In this document: one piece after another, positions 42,581-63,135 of the stretch | How the letters are laid out: each line of letters starts with the position of its first letter | Numbering within the stretch: position 1 is the first letter of the stretch | Source: Paenibacillus borealis | Lineage (GTDB): Bacteria > Bacillota > Bacilli > Paenibacillales > Paenibacillaceae | DNA: 64,000 bases | Assembly: GCF_000758665.1 (NCBI RefSeq) | Contig: NZ_CP009285.1 | Coordinates: 3,658,001 to 3,722,000, forward strand | Direction: 5' to 3' | Translations under genes and position numbers: made by a program | The notes under the pieces: generated by a model | Seen by the model: only the letters and a program-made list of their open reading frames with translations | What the model was told of the DNA's origin: nothing | The model's database searches: none

Positions 42581-42811
42581 ATATAAGACGCACTAAAGAA
42601 ACTAACAAATTTGGAACTGTAGGAGAGGATAGCGGTCGCCCGAGAGCTTTCCGCAGGAAAGCTAGCTTCAGAAGCATCAGCAGTCACCGGATTTCACCGC
42701 GAACAGCAGCAAATAATCAAGAAATCTGGGGGGCGGGCAGCGGCCGGAAGTCCAAATGTTCACCGCAGTGACGACTAAGCTTCAAGTTCAAATCTTAAGT
42801 GCGTCTTATAT
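42581..42811. mobile_element. MITE-like element with 14-bp terminal inverted repeats
   Basis: ATATAAGACGCACT (42581-42594) and AGTGCGTCTTATAT (42798-42811) are exact inverted repeats bounding 231 bp with no coding frame. The right 131 bp match 28986-29114. The element has an internal AGCTTTCC..GGAAAGCT hairpin. Non-autonomous transposable elements look like this, but no clear target-site duplication can be assigned because the ends are A/T palindromes. Confidence 0.65.
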
Positions 42812-42997: not shown

Positions 42998-44443
42998 TTG
43001 CCTGAACTTACTTCATCATACGTTGATTCACTTGCGCCCAATGCTGCAGCTATCAAGAACGGCCAAGGCCTGGTCCGCAAAAAGAGCTTCATAGAGCTCC
43101 ATCAGTCGGAGAACGGAGAGCTGCTGTTTGGTAAATGTGCAGGGAGCGGCAAGACTCCATATGAGTGTTCTGTGGATTTCATCGTGCCGGACAGTCCGGT
43201 ATTCCGCTGCAGCTGCCCCAGCCGCCAGTTCCCCTGCAAGCATGCGCTGGGCCTGCTCTATGCCCGTGTCGAAGGCCAGACGTTCAGCCCTGCTCCCGTC
43301 CCTGAGGACATAGCCTCCAAGCGTGAGAATGCTGAGAAGCGGGAAGAGAATAAGGTGAAACAGGCGGCCGAGGGTGCTGAGCCTAAGCCGAAGAAGATTA
43401 ATAAATCCGCGCTCAAGAAAAAAATCACCGCACAGCTTGAAGGGCTCGATATGCTCGAGAAGCTGGTGCTGGGGTTCGTCCGCGGCGGGCTGTCCACCAT
43501 TGACCGTTCGAGCATGAAGACGATACAGGAGCAGGTGAAGCAGCTTGGCAACTATTATCTGTCAGGTGCGCAGATTGAGCTGCGCCGGTTCACTATCCTA
43601 ATGTCCGGCGGCAATGACCAGGAGCAGAACTATACATATGCGATGGAGCAGCTGTCACGGCTTCATGCATTTATTAAGAAGGGCCGGGCGTATCTGCTGG
43701 CCCGGAGCGAGGACCCTGAGCTTGCGCTCGACCATGAATCGACCATCGATGAGTGGCTGGGACATGCCTGGCAGCTGAGCGAACTGAAGGAATACGGCCT
43801 GGTGAAGGAAGGGGCCGAGCTGCTGCAGCTGGCCTTCTACAGCTTCAATGATATGGCGCGGCTGGAATATGTGGATCTCGGGTATTGGGTGGACCTCACT
43901 GCAGAAGGCGGGAAGATCCACCGGACGGTCAATTACCGGCCGTATAAGGCAGCTAAGCTGATGCGGGAGGAAGACAGCTTCTTTGAGATTGCCGTGGTCC
44001 CTCAGCTATATACTTATCCGGGGGATATGAATGCGCGGGTCCGTTTTGAAGCGATGACTCCAAGGACAGTGCAGGGCCCGGATATAGAACGGGCTACTGC
44101 CCAGGCTCACCATTCCTACGCTGAAGCTGTCAAAAAAGTGAAGAATCAGATCAAGAATCCGCTCAGTGACAAGCTGCCGGTGATGCTGCTGCATGCCGCC
44201 AGCCTGGGTGTTACGGAGAGCGGCCAATATGTTATTACAGATGAATCCGGCAGCAGCCTGGTTCTGGAGGATATTCCGTCTCTGCCGCAGGGAACCGTGC
44301 ATATGCTGCCGTTTGTGCCAGCTGCCGCTCATACGGACTGCTTCCTGCTGGTGATGTTCGAGCATAACCTGGACAAGGGAAGGCTCACTGCCCAGCCGCT
44401 GACAGTCATTAAGAATGATGATATCATCCGCTTGCTGTACTAG
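42998..44443 (+). CDS. SWIM zinc-finger protein (YehQ-like)
   Basis: The 481-residue protein has a SWIM motif near the N-terminus, FRCSCPSRQFPCKHALGLLY, with Cys71-x-Cys73-x6-Cys80-x-His82. A Lys/Glu-rich hinge (about 105-145) and a long helical remainder without known motifs follow. SWIM domains bind DNA or proteins. The TTG start at 42998 follows GGGAGGA at 7 nt; the frame could begin at 42950 without a site. It is the first gene of the five-gene cluster ending with the VWA protein and resembles E. coli YehQ by domain and neighbourhood. Confidence 0.82.
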   Translation: MPELTSSYVDSLAPNAAAIKNGQGLVRKKSFIELHQSENGELLFGKCAGSGKTPYECSVDFIVPDSPVFRCSCPSRQFPCKHALGLLYARVEGQTFSPAPVPEDIASKRENAEKREENKVKQAAEGAEPKPKKINKSALKKKITAQLEGLDMLEKLVLGFVRGGLSTIDRSSMKTIQEQVKQLGNYYLSGAQIELRRFTILMSGGNDQEQNYTYAMEQLSRLHAFIKKGRAYLLARSEDPELALDHESTIDEWLGHAWQLSELKEYGLVKEGAELLQLAFYSFNDMARLEYVDLGYWVDLTAEGGKIHRTVNYRPYKAAKLMREEDSFFEIAVVPQLYTYPGDMNARVRFEAMTPRTVQGPDIERATAQAHHSYAEAVKKVKNQIKNPLSDKLPVMLLHAASLGVTESGQYVITDESGSSLVLEDIPSLPQGTVHMLPFVPAAAHTDCFLLVMFEHNLDKGRLTAQPLTVIKNDDIIRLLY

Positions 44444-44479
44444 AATACACTCAAGTTCATTCACATAGGAGGACAGTCC

Positions 44480-46327
44480 ATGAGCACAGCGTTATTACAG
44501 GAGCTGCATCAGGAGATTAGAAGACTGTATATTGCCGGAAGCGAGCTGGCGGCTGGAGACTTCCGCCTGAAACGCCTGCTTCCGCAGTTTCAGCAGCTGG
44601 GGGAACGTGCCCCGGTCTTTAAGAAGCTGGGCGAGGGCGTAGCTTCATTACTGGAGCCTGGCGGCGCAGAAGGGACCGCTCCCGGCTTTCAATTGCAGGA
44701 GCTTACGCTGCTGCTGGAGTCGGTGCTGTATACCCAGGGGACTACAGCAGCTGACGGAACTCCCGGTCCTTTGAAGGCCTTGAGCTTTGCCCTGAAGACG
44801 AATCAGCCTTACCGTAAGATTGGTGCCGTTCAGCAGGCGCTCAGCACAACCGGAAGCGGCAGATACGAAATTGTAATTGATGCCTTTAAGGAAGGTGTTT
44901 TTCAGGATTTACGGCTGCTGCCATCGGCAATCTCGGCGCTGAACGATCCGTATTCAGAACTTGCGGATTTTGCAATGAACGATATTCTTCCGTCTTATGG
45001 ACCGGACATTGCCGGGTACCTGCTGGACAGCTTTGATCCTGCCGGCGGCCGGGCTGAGGTCCGCAAGCTTGAGGTGATCGGCAAGGTGGGGGGAGACCGG
45101 TATCTGGAAGAGATCTTCCGTGCCGCCGGAAGCGGCAGTGAAGACATCCGGGTAACCGCTATGAAATGGCTCGCCGGTCATGAGCAATATATCGGTGCAC
45201 TGCTGGAGTGGACAACAGATAAGAAGAAGGCTATCCGTGAAGGCGCATTCTCGGCACTGGCTGCGGGCGGTTCACCGCAGGGCGGAGAGCGTCTTGTGGA
45301 AGCTTTCACTGCGAAGAAGGACCGTGAGATGGTCGCCGGTGTACTGGCGGGCAGAGCCTCCGCAGAGGTCTCTGCCAAGCTGGCGGTACTGTTCATGGAA
45401 GAACTGCAACAAGCGCCGCAGAATAATGAAGACAAGAAGCTGACGGAGACCGCATGGAATGCTCTTCTCCCGTTCGTGACCGCTCTGCGCCATGTGCGGA
45501 GCCCGCAGCTGGATGAAATCTACAGCTATGTCCTTCAGGAGTATGCCCGTTTCTCCCCGCTGGGCTGGATTCCGCTCATTGACCAGGCAGCCTGGTACAA
45601 AGAGAACACTCCGGGCGGAGCTGCACTGGCAGAGCTGGAGGCGCTGGAGAAGCGGAGTGTGCGTTTCCTGCCGAATTACTTCCATGCCGCCCAGCGGGTG
45701 ATGACTCCCAAGGAGCTGTTCAACCGGTTCGGCGGAACCTTTATGGATAAATTGAAGGCGCTGGTGGGCAAGGATGCCAAAGATGCGGCTCAGCGCGCCC
45801 AACTGCTGATTAATACGATTGAGGAGCAGGTCGTAGATATCCGCCGCAGGGCGTATGAAGTGGAGTGGGATGCTTCGGGAATCAGGCAGCCGTACAGCAG
45901 GGAAATGCTGCCAGCCGGGGAGATTGCGGCAGCCTGGGATCCGCGCTGGCTGGACTGGTTCATTCAGCATGATGCGGTTAACCTGGCAAGCGCTTTTGCC
46001 CGGCCGGGCCATAAGGGCGTACGGGACTACCTGCTTGGCAAGCTGCAGGAGCCGTTTAAACGCCAGACTTATGATCTCATTTCTAATATTTTCAAAGGTC
46101 TGGAAAGGGCCGGGGTGCCGGAGCCTGAGCGTCTTGAGCTGCTGATGACAGCACTGGAGAATAAAAATGCTCATACGCCTTATACGTTTGAGTTCTACTT
46201 ATTTAAACTGATGGAGCGCTTCCCGGCCAGCTATGCAGGCCGTCTGGAAGCAATAATCCCTAAATATAGATATGAATGCAGGCAGCAGCTGGAGTATGTA
46301 CTGAACAGCTTGAAGAGTGCGCAATAA
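44480..46327 (+). CDS. HEAT-like helical repeat protein (DUF5691-type?)
   Basis: The 615-residue cytoplasmic protein is almost all helix with HEAT-like units, for example VRKLEVIGKVGGDRYLEEIFRAAGSGSEDIRVTAMKWLAG and AIREGAFSALAAGG. It has no catalytic motif. It probably serves as a scaffold. AGGAGGACAGTCC precedes the ATG, 36 bp after the SWIM gene. Comparable genes lie in MoxR/VWA/SWIM clusters of other bacteria. The DUF name is from memory and unverified. Confidence 0.68.
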   Translation: MSTALLQELHQEIRRLYIAGSELAAGDFRLKRLLPQFQQLGERAPVFKKLGEGVASLLEPGGAEGTAPGFQLQELTLLLESVLYTQGTTAADGTPGPLKALSFALKTNQPYRKIGAVQQALSTTGSGRYEIVIDAFKEGVFQDLRLLPSAISALNDPYSELADFAMNDILPSYGPDIAGYLLDSFDPAGGRAEVRKLEVIGKVGGDRYLEEIFRAAGSGSEDIRVTAMKWLAGHEQYIGALLEWTTDKKKAIREGAFSALAAGGSPQGGERLVEAFTAKKDREMVAGVLAGRASAEVSAKLAVLFMEELQQAPQNNEDKKLTETAWNALLPFVTALRHVRSPQLDEIYSYVLQEYARFSPLGWIPLIDQAAWYKENTPGGAALAELEALEKRSVRFLPNYFHAAQRVMTPKELFNRFGGTFMDKLKALVGKDAKDAAQRAQLLINTIEEQVVDIRRRAYEVEWDASGIRQPYSREMLPAGEIAAAWDPRWLDWFIQHDAVNLASAFARPGHKGVRDYLLGKLQEPFKRQTYDLISNIFKGLERAGVPEPERLELLMTALENKNAHTPYTFEFYLFKLMERFPASYAGRLEAIIPKYRYECRQQLEYVLNSLKSAQ

Positions 46328-46387
46328 TCCAAGGCGGATTTAACTTGAGCAATGTATTAGAAGAGTATCTATAAAGGAGAGGTGTTC

Positions 46388-47491
46388 ATGTCGACGGAAC
46401 AAAGCCAGCTTCAGGATTACATGCGTCTGCCAGCCGAGGTTCTATACCGTGAGGAACTGGAGGCATTACGCAGGGAAGATACAGGACGTATCCCTGCCGG
46501 GTGGCAGATGTCCCCGCGATCGGTGTTAACCTTCATTGCCGGAGGCAAGGCGGGCAAGACCGTGATTACCCCGAAATATATCGGCAACACGCGGCTGATT
46601 GAGATGGCGGTCGCCACGCTGGTGACCGACCGTGCCCTGCTGCTGATCGGGGAGCCGGGAACGGCGAAGTCCTGGCTGTCCGAGAATCTGGCGGCTGCGA
46701 TCTACGGCAACTCGGGTCTGGTTGTGCAAGGGACTGCCGGAACCAGTGAAGAGCATGTACGCTACTCGTGGAACTATGCCATGCTCCTGGCGAACGGCCC
46801 TACACCGGAGGCGCTGGTCAAGAGCCCGATCATGCGGGCGATGGAGGACGGCGGCATAGCCCGGTTTGAGGAGATCTCCCGCTGCGCTTCCGAGGTGCAG
46901 GATGCACTGATCTCCATTCTCTCGGAGAAGACGATCTCCGTCCCGGAGCTGGGCAAGGAGACCAGTGCCCGCAAAGGCTTCTCCATTATTGCCACCGCCA
47001 ATACGCGTGACCGCGGCGTGAATGAGATGTCAGCGGCGCTCAAGCGCCGGTTCAATATCATCGTGCTGCCGGCACCGTCCGATCTGGAGACGGAGCTGTC
47101 GATCGTGAAGAAGCGGGTTGCGGAGATTGCTTCTTCGTATGAGCTTCAGGCTTCCGTTCCGGCGGATGAAGCACTGCTGAAGGTAGTGACGATCTTCCGC
47201 GAGCTGCGCAGCGGCATGACGCTCGATAAGAAGGAGAAGGTGAAGACACCGGCGGGTGTAATCTCCACGGCGGAAGCCATCTCACTGCTGACGAACAGCA
47301 TGGCCCTGGCAGCCAGCTTCGGCAGCGGAGAATTGACCGACGGGGATCTGGCTGCCGGCCTTCAGGGGGCTATCGTCAAGGATGACGACAAGGATAAGCT
47401 GGTCTGGAAGGAATACCTCGACAATGTTATGAAGAAAAAAGGAGCGGACTGGCGCGGACTGTATCAAGCCTGCAAGGAGATGAACGAGTGA
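46388..47491 (+). CDS. MoxR-family AAA+ ATPase (YehL-like)
   Basis: The 367-residue protein has a complete AAA+ core: Walker A LIGEPGTAKSWL (about residues 87-98), a Walker B-type GGIARFEEISR (about 155-165, D/E-E form), sensor 1 IIATANTRDRGVNEMS and Arg finger ALKRRFN. MoxR ATPases act with VWA proteins to remodel partner proteins or load metals. The start at 46388 follows AAAGGAGAGG. Its end overlaps the next gene by 4 bp. It is the motor of the cluster. Confidence 0.9.
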   Translation: MSTEQSQLQDYMRLPAEVLYREELEALRREDTGRIPAGWQMSPRSVLTFIAGGKAGKTVITPKYIGNTRLIEMAVATLVTDRALLLIGEPGTAKSWLSENLAAAIYGNSGLVVQGTAGTSEEHVRYSWNYAMLLANGPTPEALVKSPIMRAMEDGGIARFEEISRCASEVQDALISILSEKTISVPELGKETSARKGFSIIATANTRDRGVNEMSAALKRRFNIIVLPAPSDLETELSIVKKRVAEIASSYELQASVPADEALLKVVTIFRELRSGMTLDKKEKVKTPAGVISTAEAISLLTNSMALAASFGSGELTDGDLAAGLQGAIVKDDDKDKLVWKEYLDNVMKKKGADWRGLYQACKEMNE

Positions 47492-49836
47492 GTGGCGCGG
47501 CGGTTGCGGCCGGTGTGAATATTTTTGGGGTACGCCATTTGTCTCCGGGCGGTGCAAAGCATCTGCTGGAATACTTGAATGAGCTTCAGCCGACGGCTGT
47601 CCTGATCGAAGGACCCGGAGATGCGTCTGACGAGATTCGTCATTTGACCCACACCGTCACGAAACCTCCGGTTGCGATTCTGGCCTTTACTGAGGATTTG
47701 CCTGTACGGACGGTGCTGTGGCCCTTTGCTGTCTACTCCCCGGAATACCAGGGAATGCGCTGGGCGAAGGATCATGGGGCGGAGGCGGAATTCATCGATC
47801 TTCCCTCCTCTGTAACCCTTGGTCTGCAGGATGCCCTGCGGCATGAATCCGGGAGCAGGCCGGTGCTCAAGCCTGCGGCGGATGAACAAGGCGAGCCTAC
47901 GGATGATGAACTGCAGGAGCAGGAATCGGTGTATAGCCGGATTGCCCGGCTCGCCGGTGAACCCGACTATGATATGTATTGGGAACGCAATTACGAGCAT
48001 AACGCCAGCAGCGGAGCATACCGTGCGGCGATACTGGCGTTCTCTGCACAGATGCGTGAGCTGTCAGGGTCCCGCGAGCGGATTGAGCAGCCCCGTGAAT
48101 ATGCCTATAACGCGCTGCGCGAAGCTTACATGCGGCGCCAGATCCGGAAGAAGATTGAATCCGGACATCAGCCGGAGAAGATTGTAGTGATCTGCGGCGC
48201 TTACCATGCTGCTGCACTGGCCGACCTTACAGATGTAATGACCGACAGCGAGCTGGCGACCCTGCCTTCACGCAGCACGAAGCTGACGCTGATGCCGTAT
48301 TCGTATTATAAGCTCTCCACGATGTCCGGCTATGGTGCAGGCAACGGGGCTCCGCATTACTTCGAGCTGATGTGGGAGCTGATGGAGTCCGGACGGGCTG
48401 CGGATCTGCCGCATCTCTACCTGTCATCCGTGGCAAGACAGGTACGCGGCCATGGTACGCACCGTTCCACCGCCGAAGTGATTGAAGCGGTCCGGCTGGC
48501 AGAGTCACTGGCAGCTCTGCACGGCGGGAGCGCGCCTACGCTGCGTGATCTGCGCGATGCCGCCCAGACGCTGCTCGGCCACGGTGATCTCTCCATAGTT
48601 GCCGAATCACTGGCACGGGTGGATGTCGGTACGGCAATCGGCAGCCTGGCCGAAGGTGTCAGCCAGACACCGATCCAGGATGACCTGAACCGGCTGCTGA
48701 AGCAGTATAAGCTGGAGAAATACAAGTCCACAGTAGCCAGCGACCTGGCGCTCGATCTGCGCGAGAACCGACGGGTGTCAAGCAGCGAAGCGGCCTACCT
48801 GGATCTGCACCGTTCCGTGCTGTTTCACAGGCTTGCGCTGCTGGGCATTTCCTTCGCGCGGAATGTGCCAAGCGGCCAATCCGGGGCGACCTGGGCAGAG
48901 CACTGGATTATCCAGTGGTCACCGGAGGTAGAGATCCAGGTGGTTGAATCCACCCTTCTGGGCGAGACCATTGAAGTCGCTGCAGCCTATGTGCTCCGTG
49001 AGAAGCTGCTGGAATGCCGCTCGATTACTGATGCGTCTGCACTGATCCGCATCGCCTGCCAGTGCGCGATGACCTCGCAGATGGAGGAGGGCAGCCGGGT
49101 GCTGCAGAGCCTCGCGGTGGACAGCCGCGATGTAGTTGCTATTGCCGCTGCTGCCCGGGAGCTGGCGACCATCATCGGCTATGGCGATATCCGCAAGGTG
49201 GATACCGCTCCGCTTGTGCCGCTGCTGGAGGAGCTGTTCCGGCGCGGCTGTCTGTTCTTGCTGGATGCGAGCGGCTGTAATGATGAAGCGGCTGCGTATA
49301 TGATCAGCGCGATGAATGAGCTGAACGGCATTGCGCTTGAGCACAGCGAAACGCTGGATACTGCCTTGTGGCTGCAGGAGCTGCTGCTGCTCTCCCAGCG
49401 GGATGACCGTAATCCCCGGCTGTCCGGCTTCGCCTGCGCCATCCTGATGGAGCGGGCTGCGGTCTCTGCGGAAGATGTAGCCGCAGAGGTATCCCGCCGT
49501 CTGTCTCCGGGTATCCCTGCTGATCTGGGGGCGGGCTGGTTCGAAGGATTGTCTATGCGTAACCGCTACGGCCTGTTGTCGAGGATGAGCCTGTGGGAGC
49601 AGTTGAATGATTATATCAATGCCCTGGATGATGAGGAATTCAAGCGCGCCCTGGTCTTTCTGCGCCGGGCGTTCAGCACCTTCTCGCCAAGAGAGAAGAC
49701 GATGATTGCCGAGCTGCTGGGTGAGCTGTGGGGTGTGAACACAGAACAGGCTGCTGAGATTCTGACAGGCGAGCTGAAGGAGGAGGAAGCCAAGATGCTG
49801 GATGAGCTGAATGATTTTGACTTCGGTGACCTATAG
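47488..49836 (+). CDS. DUF5682 protein (YehM-like), TIKI/TraB-like N-terminal region
   Basis: The 782-residue protein begins with NIFGVRHLSPGGAKHLLEYL and AVLIEGPGD, and later has REAYMRRQIRKKIESG and KIVVICGAYHAAAL. Two G-x-x-H motifs (G14-H17 and G237-H240), a Glu41-Gly-Pro and a helix ahead of the second motif match the pattern of the TIKI/TraB/EreA-type hydrolase superfamily. Residues 260-782 are helical with no known motif. It is cytoplasmic. The start overlaps the ATPase stop by 4 bp and the stop abuts the VWA start. Family name and superfamily link are inference. Confidence 0.78.
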   Translation: MSGAAVAAGVNIFGVRHLSPGGAKHLLEYLNELQPTAVLIEGPGDASDEIRHLTHTVTKPPVAILAFTEDLPVRTVLWPFAVYSPEYQGMRWAKDHGAEAEFIDLPSSVTLGLQDALRHESGSRPVLKPAADEQGEPTDDELQEQESVYSRIARLAGEPDYDMYWERNYEHNASSGAYRAAILAFSAQMRELSGSRERIEQPREYAYNALREAYMRRQIRKKIESGHQPEKIVVICGAYHAAALADLTDVMTDSELATLPSRSTKLTLMPYSYYKLSTMSGYGAGNGAPHYFELMWELMESGRAADLPHLYLSSVARQVRGHGTHRSTAEVIEAVRLAESLAALHGGSAPTLRDLRDAAQTLLGHGDLSIVAESLARVDVGTAIGSLAEGVSQTPIQDDLNRLLKQYKLEKYKSTVASDLALDLRENRRVSSSEAAYLDLHRSVLFHRLALLGISFARNVPSGQSGATWAEHWIIQWSPEVEIQVVESTLLGETIEVAAAYVLREKLLECRSITDASALIRIACQCAMTSQMEEGSRVLQSLAVDSRDVVAIAAAARELATIIGYGDIRKVDTAPLVPLLEELFRRGCLFLLDASGCNDEAAAYMISAMNELNGIALEHSETLDTALWLQELLLLSQRDDRNPRLSGFACAILMERAAVSAEDVAAEVSRRLSPGIPADLGAGWFEGLSMRNRYGLLSRMSLWEQLNDYINALDDEEFKRALVFLRRAFSTFSPREKTMIAELLGELWGVNTEQAAEILTGELKEEEAKMLDELNDFDFGDL

Positions 49837-51063
49837 ATGGGGGAGGATATTAAGGATAACGTACGGAACGGCGCTGTATCGCGCTGGAGGCTGATTCTGG
49901 GTCAGGAAGCAGAGGAAGCTTTATCCGGTTACGGGGCAGGCGGCGGGACAGCACTCAGCGAGGAAGAGCTGATTATGGATGCTGCGCTGGCTGCGATCTA
50001 TAATGAAGCAGGTGCAGGCGGAGCTGACGGAAATTCACAAACAAGTTCAAAGGGCAGAGGTGCGGGATCGGGGCATGCCGCCATTAATCTGTCCAAGTGG
50101 CTTGGGGATGTGCGCACGTTCTTCCCGGAGGATGTTGTCTCGATTATCCAGAGTGATGCCATGGAGCGCAAAGGCTGGAAGCAGCTGTTGTTCGAGCCGG
50201 AGCTGCTGGCGGCAGTGAAGCCGGATATACAGCTGGTCGGTACACTTCTGGCGCTCAAAGGCAAGATTCCCGAGAAAACAAAGGACACGGCAAGAATGCT
50301 TGTCCAGGCACTGGTTGACGAGCTGGTCAAGCTGCTGGAGACGGACATCCGCCGTGCCGTCACAGGCGCGCTGAACAAGCGGCAGCATTCCCCGCTGCCA
50401 TCGCTGAGCGGGCTGGACTGGAAGCGGACCATTGAGCGCAATCTGAAGCATTATGATGCGGACCGGCGGATGATTATCCCCGAGCGGTTCTTTTATTTCG
50501 ACCGGGCCCGCCGCAGCAAGGAGTGGACTGTGATCGTGGACATTGACCAGAGTGGATCGATGGCCAGCTCCGTCATTTGGGCTTCGGTTATCGGCTCGAT
50601 CTTTGCCAGCATTCCGGCACTGAGCACGCGTGTGGTCGCTTTTGACACCGAGGTTGTAGATTTGACTGAGCAATGTGCCAATGATCCCGTTGACATGCTC
50701 TTCGGCATTCAGCTTGGCGGCGGTACGGATATCCACAAGTCAGTGAAGTACTGTGAGCAGTTCATCGAGGAGCCGAAGAAAACACTGTTCATCATCGTTT
50801 CCGATCTGTATGAGAACGGCAACCAGGCCGGACTGGTCCGGCGGATGCGTGAGCTGCGTGAATCCGGTGTGCGTACAATGACACTGCTGGCCCTGTCGGA
50901 TGAAGGGAAGCCATCCTATGATGAGCGCCTGGCCGCCCAGCTCACCCGTGACGGAACCCCTTGTTTTGCCTGTACTCCGGCGTTGCTGCCCGCTCTGGTT
51001 GAAGGGGCGCTGAAGGGCCAGGATCTTGGCGAATTGTCCAAGCGGCTGGGGATGACGCGATAA
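49837..51063 (+). CDS. VWA-domain protein (YehP-like)
   Basis: The 408-residue protein has an N-terminal helical part (~1-210) and a C-terminal von Willebrand A domain with a metal-ion site WTVIVDIDQSGSMASSV (D-x-S-x-S), LGGGTDIHKSV and LFIIVSDLYENG. VWA proteins next to MoxR ATPases act as its adaptor or substrate partner. The ATG follows the DUF5682 stop directly with no good ribosome site, so it is made by coupled translation. It is the last gene of the five-gene cluster. Confidence 0.88.
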   Translation: MGEDIKDNVRNGAVSRWRLILGQEAEEALSGYGAGGGTALSEEELIMDAALAAIYNEAGAGGADGNSQTSSKGRGAGSGHAAINLSKWLGDVRTFFPEDVVSIIQSDAMERKGWKQLLFEPELLAAVKPDIQLVGTLLALKGKIPEKTKDTARMLVQALVDELVKLLETDIRRAVTGALNKRQHSPLPSLSGLDWKRTIERNLKHYDADRRMIIPERFFYFDRARRSKEWTVIVDIDQSGSMASSVIWASVIGSIFASIPALSTRVVAFDTEVVDLTEQCANDPVDMLFGIQLGGGTDIHKSVKYCEQFIEEPKKTLFIIVSDLYENGNQAGLVRRMRELRESGVRTMTLLALSDEGKPSYDERLAAQLTRDGTPCFACTPALLPALVEGALKGQDLGELSKRLGMTR

Positions 51064-62317: not shown

Positions 62318-62983
62318 TCATCGCTTAGAGAGGCCGGTTATGAACAATACAACAATTCCCCGGGAGATTTCCTCCTTAGTAGAGCCGTTCCGTTTCTGTT
62401 CATACAGGTAAAGATCGGGACTAAGGATAGAGATCAGCGCAGTGGCTGCGAAGCGGGGATCAATCCCGATAATCTCTCCGTTGGCGGACGCGCGGTGCAG
62501 AAGTTCAGTCATAACAATTCCGAGCCGCTGGAAAAAAGGATGTTCGAACTGGGTAAGCTGCTTCTTGCCGGTGAATTCGGATTTGATCATATTCAGGAGC
62601 TCCGCATATTGCTCAACGAAACCAACGACCTGCTCAATGCTGCTCTGCAGATGAGCCAGGGCAGCCGTTTCACCGGCGCTGGCAGCAAGCTGATGCTCCA
62701 TCCCGGACAGAAACTGCTCAGTGCTGTCCAGCAGCAGCGCGGAGCAGATTTCGCCCTTATCGGTGAAGCGGCGATACAGCGAGCCCTGTCCTATGCCTGC
62801 CCGTTTGGCAATGCCGTACATGCTGACGGCCTCCAGACCGCTCTCGGTGAACAGCTGGCGGGCGGCTTCGAGAATCCGCTGCACATAAGGGTCGGCGGGT
62901 TCCTTTGCAGCATTGTCTCTGTTCTCTGTGTTCTTTGGAGCTGCTGATGTTACAGGCTCAACTTCCGTTTCTATTTTTTTCAT
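62318..62983 (-). CDS. TetR-family regulator
   Basis: The 221-residue protein has an N-terminal TetR helix-turn-helix (ILEAARQLFTESGLEAVSMYGIAKRAGIGQGSLYRRFTDKGEI, about residues 37-80) after a 30-residue polar leader. A helical ligand-binding domain follows. It is divergent from the DHA2 exporter at 63209. Two identical palindromes in the 225-bp gap are its likely operators. It probably represses the exporter, and itself, until a substrate binds. Confidence 0.88.
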   Translation of the reverse strand: MKKIETEVEPVTSAAPKNTENRDNAAKEPADPYVQRILEAARQLFTESGLEAVSMYGIAKRAGIGQGSLYRRFTDKGEICSALLLDSTEQFLSGMEHQLAASAGETAALAHLQSSIEQVVGFVEQYAELLNMIKSEFTGKKQLTQFEHPFFQRLGIVMTELLHRASANGEIIGIDPRFAATALISILSPDLYLYEQKRNGSTKEEISRGIVVLFITGLSKR

Positions 62984-63077: not shown

Positions 63078-63135
63078 TTGACACAACGGACAATTGTCCG
63101 TAGACTATGAAATGCGAACACGGACAATTGTCCGT
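63078..63135. promoter_or_regulatory. Exporter promoter with twin TetR operators
   Basis: TTGACA (63078-63083) and TAGACT (63101-63106) are 17 bp apart. ACGGACAATTGTCCGT occurs twice as a perfect 16-bp palindrome, at 63086-63101 (between -35 and -10) and at 63120-63135 (over the early transcript), 34 bp centre to centre. Confidence 0.72.

What the first reader, a model, noticed from the sequence alone, without database searches (positions are those of the whole stretch)
42998..51063. Five-gene SWIM / HEAT / MoxR / DUF5682 / VWA operon resembling the uncharacterised yehLMPQ cluster
Five genes lie head to tail with gaps of 36 and 60 bp, a 4-bp overlap and one abutting pair. They encode a SWIM zinc finger, a HEAT-like scaffold, a MoxR AAA+ ATPase, a DUF5682 protein and a VWA protein. 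Established: MoxR ATPases work with VWA partners as remodelling machines, and E. coli carries a similar yehL/M/P/Q set of unknown function. Inference: the operon encodes one complex that senses, remodels or cleaves a target. The SWIM and HEAT proteins may provide target recognition. No DUF4132 (YehI-like) gene is present here.
Basis: partly seen in the sequence, partly recalled or inferred. Interest (0 to 1): 0.82.

Follow-up and report, generated by a model that had tools for sequence, protein, structure and literature searches.

The report
Undescribed five-part MoxR/TIKI-fold machine
The five neighbouring genes are an intact copy of a widely shared but undescribed bacterial protein machine that probably couples an ATP-driven motor to a putative bond-cutting enzyme, and a sister version sits in E. 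coli, where its job is also unknown.

Summary
In detail: five intact head-to-tail genes at 42998-51063 (SWIM, HEAT, MoxR, DUF5682, VWA_CoxE). Three products are full-length relatives of E. coli YehL, YehM and YehP (43, 25, 32% identity); SWIM matches YehQ only around the zinc finger. Of the 80 best loci found by DUF5682 similarity, 72 hold SWIM, DUF5691, MoxR, DUF5682 and VWA. The scaffold slot varies: HEAT here, DUF5691 in most fetched loci, DUF4132 in the E. coli type. New here: the DUF5682 N-terminal domain has, on a predicted model, the TIKI/TraB/ChaN/erythromycin-esterase fold; its 15 best-aligned PDB entries fit that superfamily, then comes a gap. His17, Glu41, Arg211 and His240 are in 55 of 55 aligned proteins, with TraB-like spacing. 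Best reading: a MoxR-VWA motor tied to a TIKI-type hydrolase, with SWIM and HEAT as recruiters. Hydrolysis, substrate and role are inferred. Defence and molybdoenzyme readings got no support but are not excluded. No held paper names DUF5682 or DUF5691.

The parts
42998..44443 (+). SWIM zinc-finger protein, 481 aa (finger C71-x-C73...C80-x-H82); C-terminal region of unknown fold; likely recruiter/adaptor
   Evidence: PF04434 25 bits; Zn ligands in all rows that cover them, 99 of 104, the other 5 gapped; a SWIM protein in 72 of 80 loci with the other four
44480..46327 (+). HEAT-repeat scaffold, 615 aa; fills the slot held by DUF5691 or DUF4132 elsewhere
   Evidence: HEAT_2 E 3.4e-5, below the curated cut-off; profile does not match DUF5691; DUF5691 found in 0 of 60 related genomes
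46388..47491 (+). MoxR AAA+ ATPase of the YehL subfamily, 367 aa; Walker A GEPGTAKS, Walker B with EE, sensor-1 N, arginine finger
   Evidence: 43% to YehL (E 1e-91) versus 20% over 94 aa to RavA (E 0.013); motif residues in 115-116 of 116 rows, Walker A last residue S or T
47488..49836 (+). DUF5682 (YehM-like), 782 aa: N-terminal TIKI/TraB/ChaN/Ere-fold domain (about residues 1-300) plus mainly helical region to the C terminus
   Evidence: PF18934 503 bits; models pLDDT 88 and 86; fold matches
47527..47616 (+). First putative active-site block of DUF5682: G14-V-R16-H17-x-x-P20 and E41-G-P43
   Evidence: R16, H17, P20, E41 in 55 of 55, G14 in 52 with 3 gapped; spacing fits GxxH and E of TraB proteins
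48118..48207 (+). Second putative active-site block of DUF5682: R211-E212..M215 and C236-G237-A-Y-H240
   Evidence: R211, E212, M215, C236, G237, H240 in 55 of 55; hhalign puts it in register with TraB R...GAxH
49837..51063 (+). VWA_CoxE protein, 408 aa, with intact MIDAS (D237-x-S-x-S, T297, D323); MoxR partner, fused to DUF5682 in Streptomyces atratus
   Evidence: VWA_CoxE 166 bits; MIDAS residues in 116-120 of 122 rows; fusion in L068

Best explanation
The operon encodes one complex, a MoxR-vWA machine with a TIKI-superfamily hydrolase as its working part. Shown here: gene co-conservation across phyla; VWA-DUF5682 and SWIM-DUF5691 fusions; intact ATPase, MIDAS and zinc-finger motifs; and, on a predicted model, a TIKI/TraB-type fold with invariant His/Glu/Arg/His positions in DUF5682. 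Inferred: the MoxR ring, bound through the VWA protein to DUF5682, uses ATP to remodel a target brought in by the SWIM and HEAT proteins, so that the DUF5682 N-terminal domain can hydrolyse a bond in it (peptide, or another ester or amide). DUF5691 and DUF4132 proteins do the HEAT protein's job in sister subtypes, E. coli yehI-yehLMPQ among them. The identity of the target is not known.
Confidence: 0.5

Rival explanations
1. Maturation chaperone: MoxR-VWA loads a cofactor (metal or haem) into DUF5682 or a distant client, and the TIKI-type fold binds the cofactor or peptide rather than cutting, as ChaN binds haem.
Against: No neighbour family recurs in more than 12 of 95 loci. ChaN-like haem ligands were not tested. 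Active-site-like His/Glu residues are invariant, more than a binding pocket would seem to need.
Confidence: 0.25
2. Conflict/antiphage system of the MoxR-vWA ternary kind described by Kaur et al. 2020, with DUF5682 as third component.
For: Same MoxR-vWA core logic. 38 of 72,556 plasmid records have DUF5682, several of them chromosome-sized; one lies next to a type I restriction set and transposases (L066). PHROGs, built from virus proteins, holds unknown-function families that match DUF5682 (E 5.6e-29) and VWA (E 6.5e-60). Patchy in the window's phylum: 5 of 299 genomes over the cut-off.
Against: PADLOC gives only two weak hits, on generic HEAT and AAA domains. No recurrent neighbour family beyond 12 of 95 loci; swapping effectors were not looked for family by family. 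Stable site beside a semialdehyde dehydrogenase gene in 13 of 21 relatives. At least 80% of the yehLMPQ stretch in 5162 of 5426 E. coli genomes, frames not checked. One phage record of 50,697, an unverified scaffold.
Confidence: 0.12
3. Molybdenum metabolism: the system serves Mo enzymes, following the old molR name of the DUF4132/WGR genes next to yehL.
For: molR reported as a molybdate-utilisation gene (Lee 1990, seen only as a reference in PMC8533742 and PMC4245954; that molR is these genes is recalled). The CoxE kinship of the VWA. The genome has MoaC and one PF00174 protein.
Against: The complete own genome has no PF02738 and no PF00384 match at E <= 0.001. In 37 same-genus genomes the system does not go with PF02738 (6 of 23 with, 8 of 14 without, p 0.085, wrong direction) or PF00384 (20 of 23, 12 of 14, p 1.0).
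Confidence: 0.05

Closest known systems
E. coli yehI-yehK-yehLMPQ (YehL subfamily of MoxR)
   Same: MoxR, DUF5682, VWA in that order, all near full-length relatives; a SWIM protein in the operon
   Different: DUF4132 (YehI) instead of HEAT; SWIM protein has two finger-like CxC...CxH stretches (by eye), sits last, and matches only near the finger; on the DUF4132 side of the tree
SWIM-DUF5691-MoxR-DUF5682-VWA operons of other phyla (annotated as such in Rhizobium, and Deinococcus)
   Same: Same gene order; relatives of SWIM, MoxR, DUF5682 and VWA
   Different: DUF5691 replaces HEAT, with no detectable sequence kinship; Deinococcus has a small extra gene
TIKI superfamily (TraB/PrgY/GumN, ChaN, erythromycin esterases, HopBA1, RRSP)
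   Same: Fold of the DUF5682 N-terminal domain; GxxH, Glu and GxxH motif positions with TraB-like spacing
   Different: Long helical C-terminal region, encoded with an AAA+ ATPase and a VWA protein; lacks the Glu two residues before the first His
MoxR-vWA ternary conflict systems (VMAP, iSTAND, FtsH, beta-propeller; PMC7159879, passages)
   Same: MoxR AAA+ plus vWA core with extra components
   Different: Extra components here are SWIM, HEAT and DUF5682; 'SWIM' and 'yeh' do not occur in that paper's text; effectors were not compared one by one
RavA-ViaA and CoxD-CoxE
   Same: MoxR-VWA logic; VWA of CoxE family
   Different: RavA is only 20% identical over 94 aa; five-gene setting; TIKI-type subunit

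Membership tests
DUF5682 (PF18934) | Match over the curated cut-off along the whole model | tested here: met
   503.2 bits against 26, positions 3-717 of 727
yehLMPQ-type system | YehL-, YehM- and YehP-like proteins encoded together | tested here: met
   43%, 25% and 32% identity over nearly full length; adjacent genes
yehLMPQ-type system | YehQ-like SWIM protein | tested here: inconclusive
   No pairwise hit; profile match over 83 columns around the finger only, probability 75%
yehLMPQ-type system | DUF4132 (YehI) protein in the operon | tested here: not met
   Absent from the operon; one copy 2.7 Mb away
MoxR AAA+, YehL subfamily | Closer to YehL than to other MoxR groups; Walker A/B, sensor, Arg finger | tested here: met
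   YehL 43% versus RavA 20%; motifs intact. Only these two references were compared
VWA_CoxE | Family match and intact MIDAS | tested here: met
   166.4 bits against 26.4; DxSxS, T, D present
TIKI superfamily | Common alpha/beta core fold | tested here: met
TIKI superfamily | Conserved His-Glu pair and second His | tested here: met
   H17, E41, H240 in 55 of 55 and at weighted frequency 1.0 in the wider set of 40
TIKI superfamily | Second Glu (ExH in RRSP, GExxH in Ere) | tested here: not met
   V15-R16-H17 here; the TraB set A10 has S at that place, so the Glu is not general to the superfamily
TIKI superfamily | Hydrolase or peptidase activity | not testable with these tools
   Needs purified protein
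MoxR-vWA ternary conflict systems | VMAP, iSTAND, FtsH or beta-propeller component | tested here: inconclusive
   None named by Pfam in the five genes and three neighbours, but whether Pfam models VMAP and iSTAND was not checked; a 30-bit bpMoxR match covers 50 of 205 positions of that ATPase model
Known defence systems (PADLOC) | Model match | tested here: inconclusive
   Two weak hits: HEAT-ARM_XIII E 0.01 and mad8 E 4e-4, on generic domains; NCBIfam names the ATPase only far below cut-offs, best MadB 53.7 bits against 475

The most novel reading that the evidence does not exclude
A previously unrecognised class of ATP-dependent hydrolase: a MoxR AAA+ ring and VWA adaptor that feed targets, selected by a SWIM/alpha-solenoid pair, to a TIKI-superfamily peptidase (DUF5682), spread over at least 14 phylum labels and including E. 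coli YehLMPQ. It would be an AAA+ protease whose proteolytic part is unlike that of Lon, Clp, FtsH or the proteasome.
Probability: 0.33. Interest if true: 0.88.

Novelty: new variant of a known kind. Interest (0 to 1): 0.68.

Why it matters
The yehLMPQ stretch is kept (at least 80% of it) in 5162 of 5426 E. coli genomes, yet the searches made here showed no account of what the set does (the listing was capped at 40 of 155 papers). Assigning a TIKI-type fold and candidate active-site residues to YehM/DUF5682, and showing that the machine is a five-part module with an exchangeable scaffold, turns an open question (what does the second MoxR ATPase of E. coli do?) into a direct test: purify, mutate three residues, look for a cleaved partner. 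If confirmed it adds a new AAA+/hydrolase pairing used across bacteria.

Tried and rejected
Defence reading: PADLOC scan, recurrent-neighbour search over 4054 flanking ORFs of the 95 loci L058-L152 (45 largest families printed; the largest, 12 loci, looks by eye like short-chain dehydrogenases and lies a median 3.6 kb away), phage collection. Not supported, but PHROGs families match DUF5682 and VWA.

Molybdenum reading: phyletic comparison and own-genome checks. No positive link, but PF00174 and MoaC are present, so not excluded.

SOS link: a Bacillus-type LexA box gave 20 matches against 21.9 expected in the window, none upstream of the operon. The E. coli-type box in L001 gave 10 against 5.9 expected, none with fewer than two mismatches. 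The promoter/terminator scan showed no sigma-70-like site just upstream of SWIM on the + strand.

Genes between MoxR and DUF5682 in L089, L121, L124 and L149 looked by eye unrelated to each other.

Full report
OBSERVATION. The window lies in a closed 8.16-Mb Paenibacillus-type genome (G000:C1:3658001-3722000; the genus is inferred from the names of the closest proteins). Pfam names them SWIM, HEAT_2 (24.5 bits, under its 27.7 cut-off), AAA_5/MoxR, DUF5682 and VWA_CoxE. Upstream lie a DesK-type kinase and a response regulator; downstream lies a semialdehyde dehydrogenase gene (asd-like).

RELATION TO YEH. Against E. coli K-12 (L001): MoxR-YehL 43% over 366 aa, DUF5682-YehM 25% over 773 aa, VWA-YehP 32% over 380 aa; SWIM and HEAT have no significant hit. 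A profile of SWIM proteins meets the YehQ profile over 83 columns around the zinc finger (probability 75%). HEAT meets neither DUF5691 nor DUF4132. The MoxR is far closer to YehL than to RavA (43% against 20% over 94 aa).

CONSERVATION NEARBY. In the genus and order, 26 of 60 genomes have DUF5682: 23 of the 37 same-genus genomes (own included) and three others. From 24 of them 26 stretches were fetched (the short contig of G023 was not). 21 carry the five genes in the window's order (L053 with DUF5682 in two frames), 2 carry MoxR-DUF5682-VWA-DUF4132-SWIM, and 3 are cut by contig ends. One genome, G010, has both types.

72 of 80 have SWIM, DUF5691, MoxR, DUF5682 and VWA within the locus: 53 with SWIM on the DUF5682 strand in a separate frame, 13 with SWIM on the other strand, 6 with SWIM and DUF5691 in one frame. 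The 8 others: L091, L094, L096 and L110 are cut by contig ends. L076 (cut upstream, none of the other four downstream), L087 (VWA, but no MoxR, DUF5691 or SWIM in the 4.9 kb upstream, where its contig ends) and L143 (none of the four) are cyanobacterial. L092 lacks SWIM. These loci were chosen by DUF5682 similarity, confirmed with a Deinococcus protein, so they are not a random sample. Counting only loci with all five, the labels are Planctomycetota, Pseudomonadota, Cyanobacteriota, Chloroflexota, Actinomycetota, Bacteroidota, Verrucomicrobiota, Armatimonadota, Candidatus Melainabacteria, Thermomicrobiota and Thermodesulfobacteriota, plus Deinococcota and, with HEAT, Fusobacteriota (L058) and the window's own phylum, taken as Bacillota: 14 labels. 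In a draw of 299 genomes of the window's own phylum only 5 exceed the family cut-off.

TYPES AND FUSIONS. A tree of 87 DUF5682 domains puts HEAT-type (support 100), DUF5691-type (97) and DUF4132-type (92) proteins each on one side of a branch. Limits: 36 loci, mostly near-copies, and frames under 650 aa were left out beforehand; 'DUF5691' was the default label, so it covers some loci where no scaffold gene is in view (L076, L087, L096, L110, L143); L069 was called HEAT type without a HEAT gene in view; the label 'fusedVWA' covers L068 and L072, but the fusion is shown only for L068; it is a quick tree with long-branch warnings for L068, L072 and the DUF4132 rows. In Streptomyces atratus DUF5682 and VWA_CoxE form one 1255-aa protein, which argues for direct contact. 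The Niastella operon (L107) has DUF5691 and, after VWA, a 984-aa protein with HEAT_2 repeats (40.7 bits) followed by DUF4132 (137 bits); it meets the pure HEAT profile at E 5e-5. So at least one DUF4132 protein is a HEAT protein, which fits one exchangeable alpha-solenoid slot. DUF5691 was found in 0 of 60 related genomes.

ACTIVE-SITE RESIDUES. R16, H17, P20, E41, E86, D104, E170, R190, R211, E212, C236, G237 and H240 are in 55 of 55 aligned proteins, G14 in 52 with 3 gapped. H17, E41 and H240 have weighted frequency 1.0 also in a set of 40 with the DUF4132 type and both Streptomycetaceae outliers. H17-E41-R211-H240 have nearly the spacing of TraB H19-E45-R216-H244. The Glu two residues before the first His, essential in RRSP, is Val here; the TraB set has Ser there.

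MECHANISM. Shown: an intact motor (Walker A, EE Walker B, sensor, Arg finger in 115-116 of 116 rows), an intact MIDAS, and the Zn finger. Inferred: MoxR-VWA remodels a target delivered by SWIM and HEAT so that the TIKI domain of DUF5682 can hydrolyse it. A parallel in print is a MoxR-vWA pair of jumbo phages with a metallopeptidase fused to the vWA (PMC7824862 passages). The main rival is cofactor loading into DUF5682, as ChaN and CoxDE suggest.

TESTS OF OTHER READINGS. Defence: weak PADLOC hits only, no neighbour family in more than 12 of 95 loci, the semialdehyde dehydrogenase gene at 375 bp or less downstream in 13 of 21 relatives, and at least 80% of the yehLMPQ stretch in 5162 of 5426 E. 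coli genomes. Against this, some copies sit on plasmids and PHROGs has matching families. Molybdenum: no positive association, and no PF02738 or PF00384 match in the complete own genome, but PF00174 and MoaC are present. DNA damage: a DUF4132 gene of D. radiodurans (drA0166) rises on DdrO depletion (PMC8533742 passages), but no LexA-type box lies upstream here.

LITERATURE. No held paper names DUF5682, DUF5691, PF18934 or PF18944. Six papers hold two or more of yehL, yehM, yehP, yehQ, yehLMPQ and MoxR; passages of two were read, the other four seen as listing only. Scattered phenotypes: a yehQ deletion and plasmids with wild-type or mutated yehQ were built in a butanol-tolerance study (PMC6442406, strain-table passages; outcome not seen); yehM was mutated in copper-exposed E. 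coli populations (PMC12409786 passages); a molR1 deletion grows slowly together with a lepA deletion (PMC4245954 passages). Sanchez-Pulido and Ponting 2013 and Lee et al. 1990 were seen only as references. The library holds open-licence papers only.

Noticed in passing
window 42581-42811: MITE-like element (19-nt terminal inverted repeats, 95% complementary, 193 nt between) upstream of the SWIM gene; the own genome gives 44 matches to this stretch, itself and fragments included.
   Followed up: partly
window 63087-63100 and 63121-63134: Two copies of the perfect palindrome CGGACAATTGTCCG between a TetR-like gene (minus strand, 62318-62983) and an MFS-type transporter gene (63209 on): a likely operator pair (gene names by eye).
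   Followed up: partly
G000:C1:1046553-1047080 (outside the window): A DUF4132 domain in a 1661-aa frame elsewhere in the same genome, longer than the YehI type; 11 of 60 related genomes have DUF4132.
   Followed up: no
L053 8371-10657: In relative G009 the DUF5682 gene is broken into frames of 657 and 146 aa while frames of the other four are found.
   Followed up: no
L051 and L049 (genome G010): One genome carries both the HEAT type and the DUF4132 type at different places, so the two are not mutually exclusive in a cell.
   Followed up: partly
L069: The only phage-collection hit (MT835988, 'UNVERIFIED' faecal scaffold) carries MoxR-DUF5682-VWA on the HEAT side of the tree and is probably bacterial DNA.
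   Followed up: partly
L070: On a clinical E. coli plasmid the yehI-yehQ-btsRS-mlrA segment sits between IS26 copies near CTX-M-15: a chromosomal segment caught by a plasmid.
   Followed up: no
E. coli/Shigella: A deletion of about 7 kb holding yehM and yehL is fixed in Shigella sonnei lineages 2 and 3 (PMC12795559 passage).
   Followed up: no
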